Assembly (NCBI GenBank): GCA_025360845.1
Contig: JANYBJ010000320.1
Location: 1 to 42,731, forward strand
Reading direction: 5' to 3'
From: a bacterium
GTDB taxonomy: Bacteria; Verrucomicrobiota; Kiritimatiellia; RFP12; UBA1067
Length of the DNA stretch: 42,731 nucleotides
The notes under the pieces were generated by a model that saw nothing but the letters and a program-made list of their open reading frames with translations, was not told the DNA's origin and searched no databases. How positions within the stretch are numbered: the stretch's first letter is position 1; each line of letters starts with the position of its first letter. Both the position numbers and the translations under genes were made by a program. Of this stretch, positions 3,930 to 27,334 are shown piece by piece.

Positions 3930-4466
3930 ATGTGTAATTGGATGGTCATGCTTTTGTTGGTGCCGGCGCTGGCCGGATTCTGTCAGGACGCCGCAAAGCC
4001 TGCCGAGCCGCAGACGGTGGCCTCCTATGTTTGGGTCAACCAGAACGCGGAGAAACTGGACGTGTTCATGCAGGACGTGGCGTCGTTCTTTGAAAAGAAC
4101 GACTACTTCTACCTGGCGACGAGTGACGGCCAAGGTGCGCGCGTGCGTCCGATCCGCTATACGATGGTGGCGGACAACAAGCTGCTGTTCGTGACCTCGT
4201 CCAAGAAAGAAATGCACGCGCAACTGCTGAAGAATCCGAACGTCGAGTTGTCGCGGACCGCCAAGGACGACAGCGCGTACATCCGCTACAAAGGCAAGGC
4301 GGTCGTGGAGAGCGATCCGAAGGTGAAGGCCAAAATGCTGGAGCTCCAGCCGGCGATGGGCAAGAAGTTCGGCGATGACACGGTGATCTTTGCGATCGAG
4401 CCGGAGCAGGTCGGCATCTTTCCGATGAAGGGCGGTCAGGCCAAGACCAAGATTTTCACGAAGTGA
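3930..4466 (+). CDS. Pyridoxamine 5'-phosphate oxidase-like flavin-binding protein with N-terminal signal peptide
   Basis: MCNWMVMLLLVPALAGFCQDA signal; FFEKNDYFYLATSDGQGARVRPIRYTMVADNKLLFVTSSKKEMHAQLLKNPNVEL is PNPOx-like. Confidence 0.75.
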   Translation: MCNWMVMLLLVPALAGFCQDAAKPAEPQTVASYVWVNQNAEKLDVFMQDVASFFEKNDYFYLATSDGQGARVRPIRYTMVADNKLLFVTSSKKEMHAQLLKNPNVELSRTAKDDSAYIRYKGKAVVESDPKVKAKMLELQPAMGKKFGDDTVIFAIEPEQVGIFPMKGGQAKTKIFTK

Positions 4467-4517
4467 TGCCGCCGGACGTTCGGATTCCGGCTGTGACGGA
4501 ACAGGAGAATCATCGCC

Positions 4518-6035
4518 ATGAACGCTCCGGCCCAAGCGCCTGCCCGTTTCTGTCTCGAAGTCTCGCCGGCGCCCTGCGTGCTGGTTTTCTTCGGCGCGAC
4601 GGGAGACCTCGCCCGCCGCAAGCTGGTCCCGTCACTCTACCAGCTCGAAACGCGCGGGCTGCTGCACGCCTGTTCGCGCATCGTGGGGTGCGGACGGTCA
4701 CCGCATGACGACACCTCGTTCCGCGCCTTGATTGCCGAGGCCCTGCCCGACGTCGCTCCGGCCCAACGTGACGCGTTCCTTAACCGCCTCTCCTACGTAC
4801 GAACGGACGACACGGACCCCGCCACCTTCACGCGCCTCGCCGAACATCTCGCCGCCCTCGACACGCTAGAGACCCCGGCCCCTTTCAACCGCCTCTATTA
4901 TCTCGCCACGCCGCCCGCCTCGTGCCAGCCGCTCGTCACCCGACTCGCGGCGGCCGGACTGCTCACGGAGACTCCCGGCAGCGACGCGTGGCGTCACCTC
5001 GCGCTAGAGAAGCCGTTCGGCGCCGACACCGCCTCGGCCGCCGCGCTTGACGCCTTCCTGCACAGTCATGTGCGCGAAGACCAGATTTTCCGCGTCGACC
5101 ACTACCTCGCCAAAGACACCGTCCAGAACATCCTGATGCTGCGCTTCGCCAATATCCTTTTCGAGCCGGTCTGGAACGCCCACTACATCGACCACGTGCA
5201 GATCACGGTAGCCGAGAGCGTCGGCCTCGAAAACCGCGCGGGCTATTTCGAACAGGCCGGCCTCTTGCGCGACATGTTCCAGAACCACCTGCTCGAAATG
5301 CTCGCGCTCGTCGCCATGGAACCGCCCGCCACCTTTACCGCCGACGCCATCCACGCCGAAAAGAAAAAGCTCATCCAGGCGATCCGGCCCTTCCTCGCCG
5401 ATGCGCTCGAAACCTGCGTCGTGCGCGGCCAATACGCGGCGGGCAAAGGCCTGCCGGGCTATCAGGACGAACCGGGCGTGCGCCCCGCCACGCAGACCGA
5501 GACCTATGTGGCGGCCAAGCTGTTCGTCGACAACTGGCGCTGGCACGGCGTGCCGTTCTACCTGCGGGCGGGAAAGCGGCTGGCCGTGCGGGAGAGCGAG
5601 ATCGCACTCGTCTTCAAGCCCGTCCCTCACTCCATGTTCGACCCGGCCGCGCCCAACACGCTCACGCCCAACACGCTGACGCTGCGGGTCCAGCCGCAGG
5701 AGAACGTCAACCTGCTGCTCCAAGCCAAACTGCCCGGCCCGAAACTCTGTATCGGCGACCTGCCGCTGCACTTCGCCTTTTCGGACCTCGGCGCGTGGGA
5801 CGCGCCCGACGCCTACGCGCGGCTGCTGCTCGACGTGATGCTGCACGACCACACGCTCTTCGTGCGCAGCGATACCATCGCCGCCGCGTGGCAGCTCTTC
5901 ACGCCGGTGCTCGACGTGTGGCGCAACGCGCCCGAGACCTGTCCGTTGCACACCTACCCCGCAGGCTCGGAGGGCCCCGACGCGGCCGCCGACCTTCTCG
6001 CCCGCGACGGCCGCGCCTGGCGCACGGAGGTTTAA
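4518..6035 (+). CDS. zwf: Glucose-6-phosphate 1-dehydrogenase
   Basis: FFGATGDLARRKLVPSLYQL, LALEKPFGAD, active-site RVDHYLAKDTVQNILMLRFAN. Confidence 0.96.
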   Translation: MNAPAQAPARFCLEVSPAPCVLVFFGATGDLARRKLVPSLYQLETRGLLHACSRIVGCGRSPHDDTSFRALIAEALPDVAPAQRDAFLNRLSYVRTDDTDPATFTRLAEHLAALDTLETPAPFNRLYYLATPPASCQPLVTRLAAAGLLTETPGSDAWRHLALEKPFGADTASAAALDAFLHSHVREDQIFRVDHYLAKDTVQNILMLRFANILFEPVWNAHYIDHVQITVAESVGLENRAGYFEQAGLLRDMFQNHLLEMLALVAMEPPATFTADAIHAEKKKLIQAIRPFLADALETCVVRGQYAAGKGLPGYQDEPGVRPATQTETYVAAKLFVDNWRWHGVPFYLRAGKRLAVRESEIALVFKPVPHSMFDPAAPNTLTPNTLTLRVQPQENVNLLLQAKLPGPKLCIGDLPLHFAFSDLGAWDAPDAYARLLLDVMLHDHTLFVRSDTIAAAWQLFTPVLDVWRNAPETCPLHTYPAGSEGPDAAADLLARDGRAWRTEV

Positions 6036-15303: not shown

Positions 15304-16347
15304 ATGATTAGGAAGGGGGGCGGCATGAGGCGCGCGCGGGTGAAAGCTGAGGGAGTCGGGTGTTACCATGTGGTGAGCCGGATCGTGGATCGCACCTTCC
15401 GGCTGGACGACAGGGAGAAAGAGGTCTTCCGGGGCACGATGCGTCGCGCGGCGGCGTTCTGCGGCGTGCGGGTGCTCACCTACGCGGTCATGGCGAACCA
15501 CTTCCACCTGCTGGTCGAGGTGCCCGAGCCGACCGGGGTGGATGAGTCCGAGCTTGTGCGGCGGATGACGATTCTCTACGGCAAGGCCCATGTGGCCAAT
15601 GCCCTTCGGCAGTGGGCCGAGTGGCGGCGGACGGGCGCGGGGCATCTCGTCGAAGAGCAGCAGGGCAGGCTGCGGGCGCGGATGTTCGATCTCAGCGCGT
15701 TCGTGAAGACCGTCAAGCAGCGCTACAGCATGTCCTACAACGGACGCTACGGCCGCAGGGGGACGCTCTGGGAAGACCGCTTCAAGAGTGTTCTGGTTGA
15801 AAACGCGGAGAGCGCGAAGGCGGCGGTCGCGGCGTACATCGACCTCAACCCCGTGCGTGCGAAGATCGTCGCGGACCCCAAGGACTACCGCTGGAGCGGC
15901 TACGGCGAGGCGTGCGCGGGCGGCAAGCTCGCGCGGGATGGTCTGACCGCGGTGCATGCCTCGCGCCACCTCGAGCAGCAAGGCGACTGGCGGCACGCGG
16001 CCCGGCGCTACCGCGTGCTGCTCTACACCGCCGGCGAGGAGAAGCGCGAGGCGTTCAGCGAAAGGGTCAAGCGGTCGGGCCTCGCGACGGCCGAGGTCGA
16101 CCGCGTGATCGGGGTCGGCGGGAAACTGACGCTCCAGCAGGCGCTGCGCTGCCGGGTCAGGTACTTCACAGACGGCATGGTCTTGGGCAGCCAGGCCTTC
16201 GTGGACGGGGTGTTCGAGAGCAACCGGCGCTTTTTCGGCCCGAAACGCAAAGACGGCGCGCGCAAGATGCGCCTGGCAGACTGGGGCGGTCTGCGCGTGG
16301 CACGCGCGTTGCGCGTCGCGCCCGTGCAGGTCCCGATGACGACATGA
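15304..16347 (+). mobile_element. RAYT / Y1 (IS200-like, REP-associated) transposase (start may be 15325)
   Basis: GCYHVVSRIVDRTF, MANHFHLLVEVPEP (HUH motif), RYSMSYNGRYGRRGTLWEDRFKSVLVE, AYIDLNPVRAKIV. Confidence 0.9.
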
Positions 16348-22886: not shown

Positions 22887-22979
22887 AGCGGAGCCGCCTG
22901 GCGAGGGATACACCCTTTCATTTCCGTTGCGCTTGTGAAGGTGGGGAGTTTATACTGATCGCATTAAAGGATACGCGAT

Positions 22980-24583
22980 ATGAGCTTGATGGTCGGTATT
23001 GTTGCTTTGCTGACGGTATTCGAAACTATGGCAGCCATGACCCGTCTGGGTTCAAACTTTACATAGACGGTACGCTCTGCGCCACGGGTCAGCCGCCATG
23101 GCGGGTGGATGTGGGCAACCTGACAGCCGGACTGCATACAATGACGATACGGTGTGTGACCTTCCCCGATATGTCTGACTCGGCCACGATCACGGTCGTC
23201 AAAGTCGACATCGCCCCAGCCGAGACGAACCTTTGCTGGACAACTCAGTCAGCGACTCTGAACCTGACCAGCGACAGCTTTCCGGGCGGTCCTGTGGAGT
23301 GGACGGTCGCGCCTTCGACGGGACTCTCAATAAACTCTTCCGACAATACCTCGTTCACCTTCAGTCCAACCAATTCGACTTCGGGGACGTACACGGTAAC
23401 TGCAAAGTCTTTAATGGTGGCTTCTCATCTGGACACATGCACGGTGAATATCGTTCAGAGTGAAGTCACCAACATCAAGTTTAACCACGACTCAGGGGCA
23501 TCGGTGCAGGACGCGCTCAACATTCGACAGGACTACAACACAGCTTATGACCTCTCGAACGGCGAATGGGTCAAGGGCGGTACGAACCTTCCGGCTTGTT
23601 ACACGACCCATACGGTTGTGACGATCAAGGCGCGTCTGACCGTACAACCGGCAAGCATCACGAGCGCCGACATATGGGCGGTTTCGACAGACTCTGACGG
23701 CTCTCTGGGCGATGTGATCAAGACCAACGTCATATTTTCAGGCGGCGTGTCCAGCCCTGAGTATGTGACCTTTCAGGTCTCCGGTCCAACGCCAAACGCC
23801 ATTAAGAAAACCACCAGCGACGTTTGGCAGTGGAAGATGGAAAACGTGAAAGGGACTGGTTCCGCCGCATGGGATTTGAACATTTCAGGTGCCCATAAGG
23901 TATATACGATTTTGAATGAACCAGTCGCACCATGGATTAATGCGACAGGGAGCCAGAAGAACGCTTGGACAAAGGCTTTGGATTTCGTAATCGCTAATGC
24001 GTCCTGTAATGGAGATTCGACCGCGTCCAACGCGCTTCTTCACATTGCCCAATATCTTCATACAGGCCACGGCCTTACATATGACATCAACGGTGGCCGT
24101 TCGAAGTACGCATCAAGTCAACTAGGTGGCACAATGAGTTTGACCGGATATATTGACAAGTCGGCAACAATATACGGAACGGCTGGCAATGTCATCAATT
24201 GCTATGATCAGGCTTCTGGGGTTTATTCGTTCGGGCGAATGCTAGGTATTTCTGTCGCATATCGTTACATGTCTCCTTTTGGCTACATTAATATCGTCAA
24301 CCTCGTTGGAGAAGGGAACTGCAACAATCCGTTCTATCCATATACGACGGGAGGTAAGATCGCTGGTGATGATGATGCCGATCCTGTTCGGTCTGGGTTT
24401 GGAAATCATGCCTTCACTGTATTCGGCGGTTACGTATATGATGCCTGCGCTGGCCCTCAAACTGGGACTCGGACAGAAACGCAGTATGTGTCCGACACTG
24501 TGGATGCATCAACTCCGGCGGAGGCGTTCGTGGCTGGGGATACGTCAAACATCAGTTCCGGCGCAGTTACAGATCTTCAATAA
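22980..24583 (+). pseudogene. Secreted Ig-like plus transglutaminase-like domain protein; signal-peptide ORF and body are in different frames
   Basis: Frame 0: MSLMVGIVALLTVFETMAAMTRLGSNFT* (22980-23066). Frame 2 body: DPSGFKLYIDGTLCATGQPPWRVDVG...NCYDQASGVYSFGRMLGI...GNHAFTVFGGYVYDACAGP. Confidence 0.65.
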
Positions 24584-24596
24584 AGAGAGGTTAATT

Positions 24597-25202
24597 ATGA
24601 AACTGAGCAGACGCATTCTTGAAGGCGGGGTTATGATAATGCTTATGGCAACAAGTTGTTTTGGAGAAAACGACACGACGGAAAGAGCTATGCGACTTAT
24701 GTCTGCGCTACACTTCCCGACCAATACCGGAAGTGCCGTAACAAGCGAGTCTGTCTTTTCCGGTAAGAATCAAGTGAAGGTTGGAGACTTCCAGATGAAG
24801 CAAAAAGGGAGATCGACTATTGATTCTGGGGCTGTGGTGGATGTCGAGATACTCGACAAAGACGGCCAGATAACGGTTACGGGTTGCTTAATCGAGAGGG
24901 TGTCTTCCGATGGTGCTCGTAAAGCTTTGGCGGAAAGGCTGGTTCAGAACTCAATGCCCATCAACGTGCTGATTCGGAAATATGAACTGCGACCTGTGAG
25001 ATTGCGGATGCGCGGGGAATCTGCTTTACTGTTCACATGCTTGACACCCGCCCGATCACCGCCTATCTGCAGCAGGTCGCAAAGCTACTGCCGAATGCCC
25101 GCAGCAAAGAACGCGCTTACCGCTCGGATCTGCAAAATCTGGCGACCAAGGTGTGGAAACGGTCTTGCCACCATACCGGAAATAGTATGGTGTTTTCAGT
25201 AA
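24597..25202 (+). CDS. Small secreted hypothetical protein, probably C-terminally truncated or altered at the accessory junction
   Basis: MKLSRRILEGGVMIMLMATSCFGENDTTERAM signal; unnatural composition after about 25020. Confidence 0.5.
   Translation: MKLSRRILEGGVMIMLMATSCFGENDTTERAMRLMSALHFPTNTGSAVTSESVFSGKNQVKVGDFQMKQKGRSTIDSGAVVDVEILDKDGQITVTGCLIERVSSDGARKALAERLVQNSMPINVLIRKYELRPVRLRMRGESALLFTCLTPARSPPICSRSQSYCRMPAAKNALTARICKIWRPRCGNGLATIPEIVWCFQ
25037..25201 (+). pseudogene. 5' relic of a larger gene, methylase/restriction-like N-terminus
   Basis: MLDTRPITAYLQQVAKLLPNARSKERAYRSDLQNLATKVWKR..., then runs into the RM cassette. Confidence 0.4.
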
Positions 25203-26089
25203 GACAGCAAGAGTCGGTCATGAACGATCTCGTTTTCGAGCGTCCCCCCCTCGCACTGAAAACGTTTTAGCATGCTGCGTCCGCAATTGACGAAGACCTC
25301 ACGTTCAAATAACCCTTCTGGAATATCAAACGTGCAGTTCACGCGGCCTGACTTCTTGGTACCGTCAATGCTTAATGCGACCCTGACACCTCGATCCTTG
25401 CAGGCCATTATGGATTGCATGAGGCGAGGCAATGAGAAGTTCTGTCCACGATACAGAATAGCTTGACTGCAGACATACGGGGGATCACAGTAAACCAAAT
25501 CACCCTCCTGTGCCATAGCCATGGCCGCTTCAAAATCCAGATTTTCGAAGCTGGCCCCCGCTGTGCGACGCTGCCAGATTAGCACGCGTTCGGAGAACGA
25601 CGCGGGTGAGATCGGATCGTGTATTCCACACGGAGTCGATATGTACCCGTCTCTCTTACGGAAGCGAACGACACCCCCATAACATGAGCGGCAGATAAAC
25701 AGAAGGTCCGCACCATTCGGCTGTTCGTTGTACCGGGCTTTAATCTGTTCGTACCCGTCCGCCCGACCGAGTTTGTGATATTCAGTGTACCGGTCGCGAT
25801 ACCATTTCATGACCAACTCGGGATCCCGCTGTAACGTCTGCCAAATCTCAATCAAAGGCGTGAACACATCCGACCCGACCGCTTTCGGAGGCTGTAACGC
25901 ACCGAGCACCGCACCGCTACCCAGAAACGGCTCGCGGTATGTTCGAATGTCTGTGGGGAAGAATGACGCGATTTCATGTGCGAAACGCTGTTTATTGCCA
26001 ATCCATTTTAGAAGCTGCGTCTTGAACTCCGATACATGCTGAAAGGCGGTTCCGTAAAAAATATCAAGCGTATCTTCCTTAACTTTCAT
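25196..26089 (-). CDS. D12-class (Dam-like) N6-adenine DNA methyltransferase
   Basis: LLKWIGNKQRFAHEIASFFPTDIRTYREPFLGSGAV (motif I), DLVYCDPPYVCS (DPPY motif IV). Confidence 0.92.
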   Translation of the reverse strand: MKVKEDTLDIFYGTAFQHVSEFKTQLLKWIGNKQRFAHEIASFFPTDIRTYREPFLGSGAVLGALQPPKAVGSDVFTPLIEIWQTLQRDPELVMKWYRDRYTEYHKLGRADGYEQIKARYNEQPNGADLLFICRSCYGGVVRFRKRDGYISTPCGIHDPISPASFSERVLIWQRRTAGASFENLDFEAAMAMAQEGDLVYCDPPYVCSQAILYRGQNFSLPRLMQSIMACKDRGVRVALSIDGTKKSGRVNCTFDIPEGLFEREVFVNCGRSMLKRFQCEGGTLENEIVHDRLLLSY

Positions 26090-26095
26090 GAATAC

Positions 26096-26124
26096 AGTAT
26101 ATCCTGATTTGGGATACAGGTCAA
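26096..26124 (-). promoter_or_regulatory. Predicted methyltransferase promoter TTGACC-N17-TATACT; ATG 6 nt downstream of -10 (leaderless)
   Basis: Reverse complement: TTGACC (26124-26119), TATACT (26101-26096), ATG at 26089. Confidence 0.65.
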
Positions 26125-26144
26125 CTATATCCTATACTAGGATA
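26100..26144. promoter_or_regulatory. Two 17-bp dyad operators (C-box-like): TATCC-N7-GGATA at 26100-26116 and 26128-26144
   Basis: TATCCTGATTTGGGATA and TATCCTATACTAGGATA; centres 28 bp apart, in the divergent intergenic region. Confidence 0.75.
26109..26138 (+). promoter_or_regulatory. Predicted XRE-regulator promoter TTGGGA-N18-TATACT; GTG start 7 nt downstream (leaderless)
   Basis: TTGGGA 26109-26114, TATACT 26133-26138, GTG 26146. Confidence 0.6.
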
Positions 26145-26145
26145 C

Positions 26146-26391
26146 GTGAAACGAAACAGATACGCTGGCAGCGAACAACATCTACGGCGCATTTTGCGCG
26201 ATTCCCGTATGTCCAGGGGAATTAAACAAGAGGATCTTGCGGAAACGCTCAAGGTGCCGCAGTCCTTTGTCAGCAAATACGAATCCGGCGAGCGGATGCT
26301 GACTTTTGTTGAAACCGTTTCGATCTGCCTCGCCATGGACATCACCCCGGAAACACTCTTAAAGGAGTACTTGCCTCACCATGAAACCTGA
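26146..26391 (+). CDS. XRE-family HTH regulator (C-protein-like controller of the RM cassette)
   Basis: LRRILRDSRMSRGIKQEDLAETLKVPQSFVSKYESGERMLTFVETVSICLAMDITPETLLKEYL; GTG start. Confidence 0.85.
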   Translation: MKRNRYAGSEQHLRRILRDSRMSRGIKQEDLAETLKVPQSFVSKYESGERMLTFVETVSICLAMDITPETLLKEYLPHHET

Positions 26392-27222
26392 CATGCGCTT
26401 TGTTGGTCTTCCAAAATGTTTCTGGGCATCGGTCCGTTTGATCGGGCAAGAATGCGGTTACGCCAAGGCAAAAATACTGACCATCCCGACACGCGAAAAG
26501 GTCGAAGCTGTTTTCTCCCGGCTCAACCTCGATGCGGCAACGCTCGACAAGTCGTTAGGCAACGGGCGGACTATGTGGAAGATGCTCGTGGCATATTTGA
26601 CTTATCGCGCTGCGGTTCTGCACAATCATTTCGACCCCAACCTCATGGATGCAGCGGCGGCAAAGCGAGCGTTCGACAAACTCAAGAAGGAGTTCCATCC
26701 AAAGTGTCCTTTGCCGATGAACAAACAGAAAGGAGTAAAAAAGCTCCTGCCTATTTCACTGGCATAATCAATATCTTAATCGAAGCGAATGCTGACGGAA
26801 CACCCTGCGATTTCGATCCGAGGGTGTTGGCAACCGTCTCGAAAAGTGGTGTGCCCATCCGAACATTTGCACGAAGAATGGACGGCGGTTTTCCTTCGGT
26901 CACAAACCCCCTCGCCATATGGGAAGTGAAAGAGTATTACTACACAACCACCTTTGGCAGCCGTGTGGCCGACGGTGTTTATGAAACGTTGCTTGATGGC
27001 ATGGAGATCGAAGAACTTGAAGCGTCTGAGGGAATTAAGGTCCTCCACTACTTGATGATTGACGCGCATTACACATGGTGGGAGTGTGGTAAATCCTATC
27101 TGTGCCGAATCGTGGACATGCTTCACATGGGTTACGTTGACGAGGTCCTTGTCGGAAAGGAAGTCCTTAGCCGCGTGCCCGAACTTGTTAAAGAATGGAA
27201 CACGCAACTCGCTCGTTCATGA
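26381..27222 (+). CDS. Putative type II restriction endonuclease (PD-(D/E)XK-like) requiring -1 frameshift at A_AAA_AAG (26737-26743); fusion about 280 aa
   Basis: Frame A (26381-26767) ends ...PMNKQKGVKK|LLPISLA*; frame B continues KK|APAYFTGIINILIEANADGTPCDFDPR...NPLAIWEVKEYYYTTTFGSRVADGVYE... Confidence 0.7.
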
Positions 27223-27334
27223 TCGGGTGTATGGTGATTTTCACGCGTTTCGCCCTTTGTTCGCGCGTTACACGCGCCTGATCGCCGCGCTCGACGAGAC
27301 CGCCGAGATCATGGCCAAGCTGTCATATAGGTAA
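27223..27334 (+). pseudogene. 3' relic with a methylase/restriction-like C-terminal signature
   Basis: VYGDFHAFRPLFARYTRLIAALDETAEIMAKLSYR* in an ORF whose upstream part is only the shadow frame of the endonuclease. Confidence 0.4.

What the first reader, a model, noticed from the sequence alone, without database searches (positions are those of the whole stretch)
25196..27222. Compact M/C/R-like module with a candidate uncharacterised endonuclease
Seen: D12 methyltransferase (DPPY), 81-aa XRE regulator whose end overlaps the next ORF by 11 nt, and a protein with D...WEVKEYY and highly ordered YYTTTFGSRVADGVYETLLDGMEIEELEAS motifs. Inference: the EVK could be the (D/E)XK of a PD-(D/E)XK nuclease paired with the methylase. 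Base composition looks lower-GC than the surrounding genes, consistent with horizontal acquisition. Recognition sequence cannot be inferred from sequence alone.
Basis: inference. Interest (0 to 1): 0.7.

Follow-up and report, generated by a model that had tools for sequence, protein, structure and literature searches.

The report
BclI-type restriction system, broken nuclease gene
This is a horizontally acquired relative of the BclI (TGATCA) restriction-modification system whose DNA-protecting enzyme and regulator are intact but whose DNA-cutting enzyme is split by a frameshift, so it is an ordinary, partly decayed defence cassette.

Summary
In detail: a methylase (M, 25196-26089 -) diverges from a controller and a nuclease (C, 26146-26391 +; R, 26381-27222 +), with an 11-nt C/R overlap and 51% G+C against 63% outside. 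The "uncharacterised" protein belongs to the R.BclI family (Pfam DUF7690+DUF7687; PADLOC REase_II PDLC03423). The same M-C-R order lies on plasmid pBcl1 of the BclI source strain NEB414, beside the crystallised C.BclI, and that strain's methylome shows TGATCA m6A. EVK sits on the expected strand of a predicted PD-(D/E)XK core; D168, E182 and K184 are invariant. R is broken here: the frame shifts by -1 at an A6 run (26737-26742), so the likely state is M+ C+ R-. Intact copies exist in relatives; among 25 loci with M and R, R is interrupted in 9 and M in none. The cassette stands between the two ends of a type ISP restriction gene whose middle is missing, in an islet absent from a same-genus genome. 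Two conserved 17-bp palindromes over divergent promoters suggest the usual C-protein switch. Specificity TGATCA is inferred, not shown. New member of a known kind; low interest.

The parts
25196..26089 (-). M: D12-class (Dam-like, alpha) N6-adenine DNA methyltransferase, 297 aa, intact; 50% identical to the methylase of the BclI plasmid pBcl1
   Evidence: Pfam PF02086 E=2.1e-27; PADLOC MTase_II PDLC03290 E=4e-66, also the best model for the pBcl1 methylase; pairwise alignment
26146..26391 (+). C: XRE/HTH_3 controller protein, 81 aa, GTG start
   Evidence: Pfam HTH_3 E=1.9e-9; PADLOC Control_protein E=1.7e-6; conserved in L002-L011
26381..26743 (+). R, first part (codons 1-121): N-terminal DUF7690 domain plus start of DUF7687; this frame stops at 26767
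   Evidence: PF24739 E=2.6e-16; PADLOC REase_II PDLC03423 E=3.7e-10; read across the break, 85% identical to intact L002
26743..27222 (+). R, second part in the -1 frame: DUF7687 catalytic part, to the stop codon
   Evidence: PF24736 E=8.7e-75; PADLOC REase_II E=3e-48; dN/dS 0.08 and 0.07 against L002 and L003
26737..26743 (+). Site of the frame break: A6 run read in frame as A AAA AAG, in the loop of a short AGGAG/CTCCT inverted repeat
   Evidence: sequence; none of the intact relatives has the run or the break
26881..26931 (+). Predicted PD-(D/E)XK catalytic residues: D168 (26881-26883), E182 (26923-26925), K184 (26929-26931)
   Evidence: invariant in 20 aligned relatives and present in the pBcl1 protein; E-V-K on the third core strand of the model of L002
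26100..26116 (.). Putative left operator TATCCTGATTTGGGATA, between the -35 and -10 of the M promoter and over the -35 of the C/R promoter
   Evidence: conserved at the same place in L002-L011 and L026, in part in L012-L014
26128..26144 (.). Putative right operator TATCCTATACTAGGATA (7 of 8 pairs), over the -10 of the C/R promoter
   Evidence: palindrome scan and footprint in relatives
26096..26124 (-). Predicted M promoter TTGACC-17-TATACT
   Evidence: promoter scan, 10 of 12 matches
26109..26138 (+). Predicted C/R promoter TTGGGA-18-TATACT, poor -35
   Evidence: promoter scan, 9 of 12 matches
24992..25156 (+). Remnant of the 5' end of a type ISP restriction gene (93% DNA identity over 24992-25141 to the gene on contig C141 of the same genome)
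27261..27334 (+). Remnant of the 3' end of the same type ISP gene (91% over 27261-27315)

Best explanation
It is a C-protein-controlled type II restriction-modification cassette of the BclI family. M methylates adenine, most probably in TGATCA. C binds two operators in the shared M-C intergenic region, shutting down M and first switching on, then limiting, C and R. R would be a PD-(D/E)XK endonuclease cutting unmethylated TGATCA, but here it is interrupted by a -1 frame break, so the cell most likely carries an M+ C+ R- remnant that methylates without restricting. The cassette arrived horizontally and sits where the body of a type ISP restriction gene used to be. Shown: gene content, family membership, frame break in the assembly, flanking remnants, absence from a same-genus genome, conserved operator-like palindromes. 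Inferred: TGATCA specificity, the regulatory switch, the catalytic roles, loss of activity.
For: Family hits; M-C-R order identical on pBcl1 and pBM69; the C protein of pBcl1 matches C.BclI, PDB 2B5A, over all 77 residues; PADLOC REase_II model PDLC03423 fits the pBcl1 R protein 1-285/1-285 with E=3.6e-206; BclI recognition T^GATCA and TGATCA m6A in NEB414, assigned to its type II alpha methylase (PMC5805893). Catalytic residues invariant; model pLDDT 90 with the alpha-beta-beta-beta-alpha-beta order around E-V-K; best solved-structure matches are the restriction enzymes PspGI and BstEII, with MUS81, Hef and Can2 nucleases further down, all weak. Frame break. Homology block limited to 25196-27201. 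Type ISP remnants on both sides. Islet absent from same-genus genome G011. Operators and promoters.
Against: R is only 41% identical to the pBcl1 R protein and M 50%, so the recognition sequence could have drifted. TGATCA is not specially avoided in the genome: observed/expected 0.67, rank 19 of 64 palindromes in 0.33 Mb. Fold matches are individually below significance. The frame break rests on one draft assembly whose reads I could not see.
Confidence: 0.82

Rival explanations
1. The frame break is an assembly or sequencing error and the system is a fully working BclI-type restriction system.
For: The break is a change of phase at a homopolymer in a draft, 326-contig assembly; the downstream half is still under purifying selection (dN/dS 0.07-0.08); the close relative L002 is intact.
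Against: The run is only six A long, one of 24 A or T runs of six or more in the window, while the other large window genes read as long open frames. Across 25 loci R is interrupted in 9 and M in 0 (Fisher p=0.0016); random assembly error would hit M, which is of similar length, as often.
Confidence: 0.22
2. The A AAA AAG heptamer is a working -1 ribosomal frameshift site, giving a small, regulated amount of full-length nuclease.
For: The heptamer is in the right phase and is the dnaX-type slippery sequence (established knowledge; position); the -1 frame continues the conserved sequence exactly at the junction.
Against: No downstream RNA structure beyond chance (z=-0.16); the upstream AGGAG is about 1 nt from the heptamer rather than about 10; no intact relative has the site, so it is not a family trait.
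Confidence: 0.05
3. The third protein is not a nuclease.
For: Pfam still calls its domains DUF7690/DUF7687 and the solved-structure matches are weak.
Against: It is in the family of the R gene of the BclI locus, next to C.BclI and a TGATCA methylase, with invariant D and E-X-K on the expected strands.
Confidence: 0.02

Closest known systems
BclI restriction-modification system (plasmid pBcl1, Bacillus caldolyticus NEB414)
   Same: Divergent M and C-R genes in the same order; same methylase, controller and DUF7690+DUF7687 nuclease families
   Different: 41% (R) and 50% (M) identity; C and R overlap by 11 nt here but are adjacent on pBcl1; the M-C intergenic sequence is different; R broken here
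BclI-like loci in Verrucomicrobia/Kiritimatiellae MAGs L002 and L003
   Same: 85% DNA identity over the module, same operators, same C/R overlap
   Different: L002 R is intact; L003 R is broken near codon 14 instead
Plasmid-borne homologues: Bacillus methanolicus pBM69 and Corynebacterium glutamicum pGA2
   Same: M, HTH regulator and R in the same order
   Different: 37-40% R identity; R annotated only as hypothetical protein
Type ISP restriction gene on contig C141 of the same genome
   Same: Its two ends match the two flanks of the cassette
   Different: An unrelated single-chain restriction enzyme (Type_ISP_C E=2.4e-81); it marks the insertion site, not the family

Membership tests
BclI-type C-controlled type II restriction-modification system | Nuclease of the R.BclI sequence family | tested here: met
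   PDLC03423 and DUF7690/DUF7687 hits for both the window R and the pBcl1 R
BclI-type C-controlled type II restriction-modification system | Paired D12-class N6-adenine methylase | tested here: met
   PF02086 and PDLC03290; 50% identity to the pBcl1 methylase
BclI-type C-controlled type II restriction-modification system | C protein gene upstream of R, with operators | tested here: met
   HTH_3 protein overlapping R by 11 nt; two conserved 17-bp palindromes. Binding itself could not be tested
BclI-type C-controlled type II restriction-modification system | Intact R reading frame | tested here: not met
   -1 frame break at 26737-26743: a member by descent, probably not a working system
BclI-type C-controlled type II restriction-modification system | Recognition of TGATCA | not testable with these tools
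   Inferred from homology; no special TGATCA avoidance
PD-(D/E)XK nucleases | Conserved D ... (D/E)-X-K on an alpha-beta-beta-beta-alpha-beta core | tested here: met
   Invariant D168, E182, K184 and matching order of elements in the model
PD-(D/E)XK nucleases | Significant structural match to a solved member | tested here: inconclusive
   PspGI best at E=0.011, probability 0.72; no match at E<=0.001

The most novel reading that the evidence does not exclude
The nuclease is expressed at a low, useful level by -1 frameshifting on A AAA AAG, a safety device that keeps restriction weak in the host.
Probability: 0.04. Interest if true: 0.5.

Novelty: new member of a known kind. Interest (0 to 1): 0.22.

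Why it matters
It links Pfam's DUF7690/DUF7687 to a textbook restriction enzyme (BclI), so many proteins annotated 'hypothetical' can be named. It also gives a small, counted example of restriction systems losing the nuclease before the methylase, and of one restriction system standing where another used to be.

Tried and rejected
Sequence search of solved structures with R read across the break: no relative. Phage records: no match. Genome-wide TGATCA avoidance: 1596 sites in 5.17 Mb; a Markov estimate on 0.33 Mb gave 0.67 of expectation, not outstanding. RNA structure after the A6 run: none beyond chance. Literature searches for R.BclI, DUF7687/DUF7690 and BmeTI (recalled from memory as a BclI isoschizomer of B. 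methanolicus, a lead only): nothing usable in the library. Structural matches to viral proteins were uninformative.

Full report
Observation. M is on the minus strand (25196-26089), C (26146-26391) and R (26381 onwards) on the plus strand. C and R overlap by 11 nt. The module has 50.7% G+C against 62.8% outside the islet. The ORF from 26416 that carries the quoted motifs is only the second half of R: codons 1-121 are in another frame from 26381, and the frame shifts by -1 at the A6 run 26737-26742. A reading across this point was used for searches only.

Identity. Pfam gives MethyltransfD12 for M, HTH_3 for C and DUF7690 + DUF7687 for R. PADLOC gives MTase_II, Control_protein and REase_II. A plasmid search with R found pBcl1 of Bacillus caldolyticus NEB414, pBM69 of B. 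methanolicus and pGA2 of Corynebacterium glutamicum, each with methylase, HTH regulator and R in the same order, plus a more distant Marinobacter locus. NEB414 is the source of BclI, T^GATCA, and its methylome holds TGATCA m6A assigned to its type II alpha methylase (PMC5805893). The pBcl1 regulator matches C.BclI, PDB 2B5A, over all 77 residues. The PADLOC model hit by the window R fits the pBcl1 R from end to end (681 bits). The window R is therefore a member of the R.BclI family. That the pBcl1 gene is R.BclI itself is inferred from its place next to C.BclI and from the PADLOC model; no paper read here states it gene by gene.

Catalysis. In 20 relatives D168, E182 and K184 are invariant, and they are present in the pBcl1 protein. 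The model of the intact L002 protein (pLDDT 90, pTM 0.88) has helix 125-137, strands 152-155, 158-162, 169-171 and 179-184, helix 194-217 and strand 222-227, the order expected of a PD-(D/E)XK core with E-V-K on the third core strand. The best solved-structure matches are PspGI and BstEII, with other PD-(D/E)XK nucleases further down, none significant alone.

Regulation. Between M and C lie TATCCTGATTTGGGATA (26100-26116) and TATCCTATACTAGGATA (26128-26144), conserved in place in relatives whose R proteins are down to about 64% identical. A good M promoter (TTGACC-17-TATACT) has the first palindrome between its hexamers. The C/R promoter has a poor -35 under the first palindrome and its -10 under the second. 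By analogy with known C-protein systems, C would repress M and activate C/R from the left site and repress C/R from the right site. This is inference.

History. DNA similarity to L002 covers 25196-27201, and to L003 25196-27185, where its contig ends. In same-genus genome G011 the genes that flank the islet (amidohydrolase ending 22886; DctP from 27395) are about 0.8 kb apart, with an unrelated gene between. The R family is patchy: 3 of 115 genomes of the taxonomic family, and it spans many phyla. The cassette is flanked by the first about 36 codons and the last about 20 codons of a type ISP restriction gene, another copy of which, long and open, is on contig C141. So the cassette stands in place of the body of another restriction gene.

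Is R dead? The half after the break still shows dN/dS of 0.08 and 0.07, so the break is recent or artefactual. In 25 loci that carry both genes, R is interrupted in 9 (L003, L004, L011, L017, L020, L022, L023, L026, window) and M in none (Fisher p=0.0016). The loci were found through R, which biases against finding broken R. They are related, so the p-value is only a guide. This makes a real loss more likely than an assembly error. Frameshifting at A AAA AAG cannot be excluded but has no supporting RNA structure and is not conserved.

Verdict. A new, partly decayed member of a known kind; interest is low.

Noticed in passing
24992-25156 and 27261-27334: Both ends of a type ISP restriction gene flank the cassette, its middle missing; another copy lies on contig C141 (L053).
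   Followed up: yes
22942-25000: Two low-G+C ORFs of no Pfam family (a possible secreted protein ending 24583 and a small one from about 24600) share the islet absent from G011.
   Followed up: partly
genome G000, 0.33 Mb sample (L055-L074 and window): GTGCAC, CAGCTG and GAGCTC are strongly under-represented (0.15, 0.17, 0.25 of expectation), as if other restriction systems had long acted on this lineage.
   Followed up: no
L027 (viral contig) 4001-5760: A BclI-family R and M lie convergent, with no C gene detected, in a predicted viral contig.
   Followed up: no
L031 1056-3845: Marinobacter plasmid with a Dam-like methylase, regulator, second methylase and a distant R relative in a row.
   Followed up: no
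L075 636-806: pBcl1 also carries a 56-aa fragment annotated as a BglII/BstYI family endonuclease.
   Followed up: no
15304-16347: ORF that by eye looks like a REP-associated tyrosine transposase.
   Followed up: no
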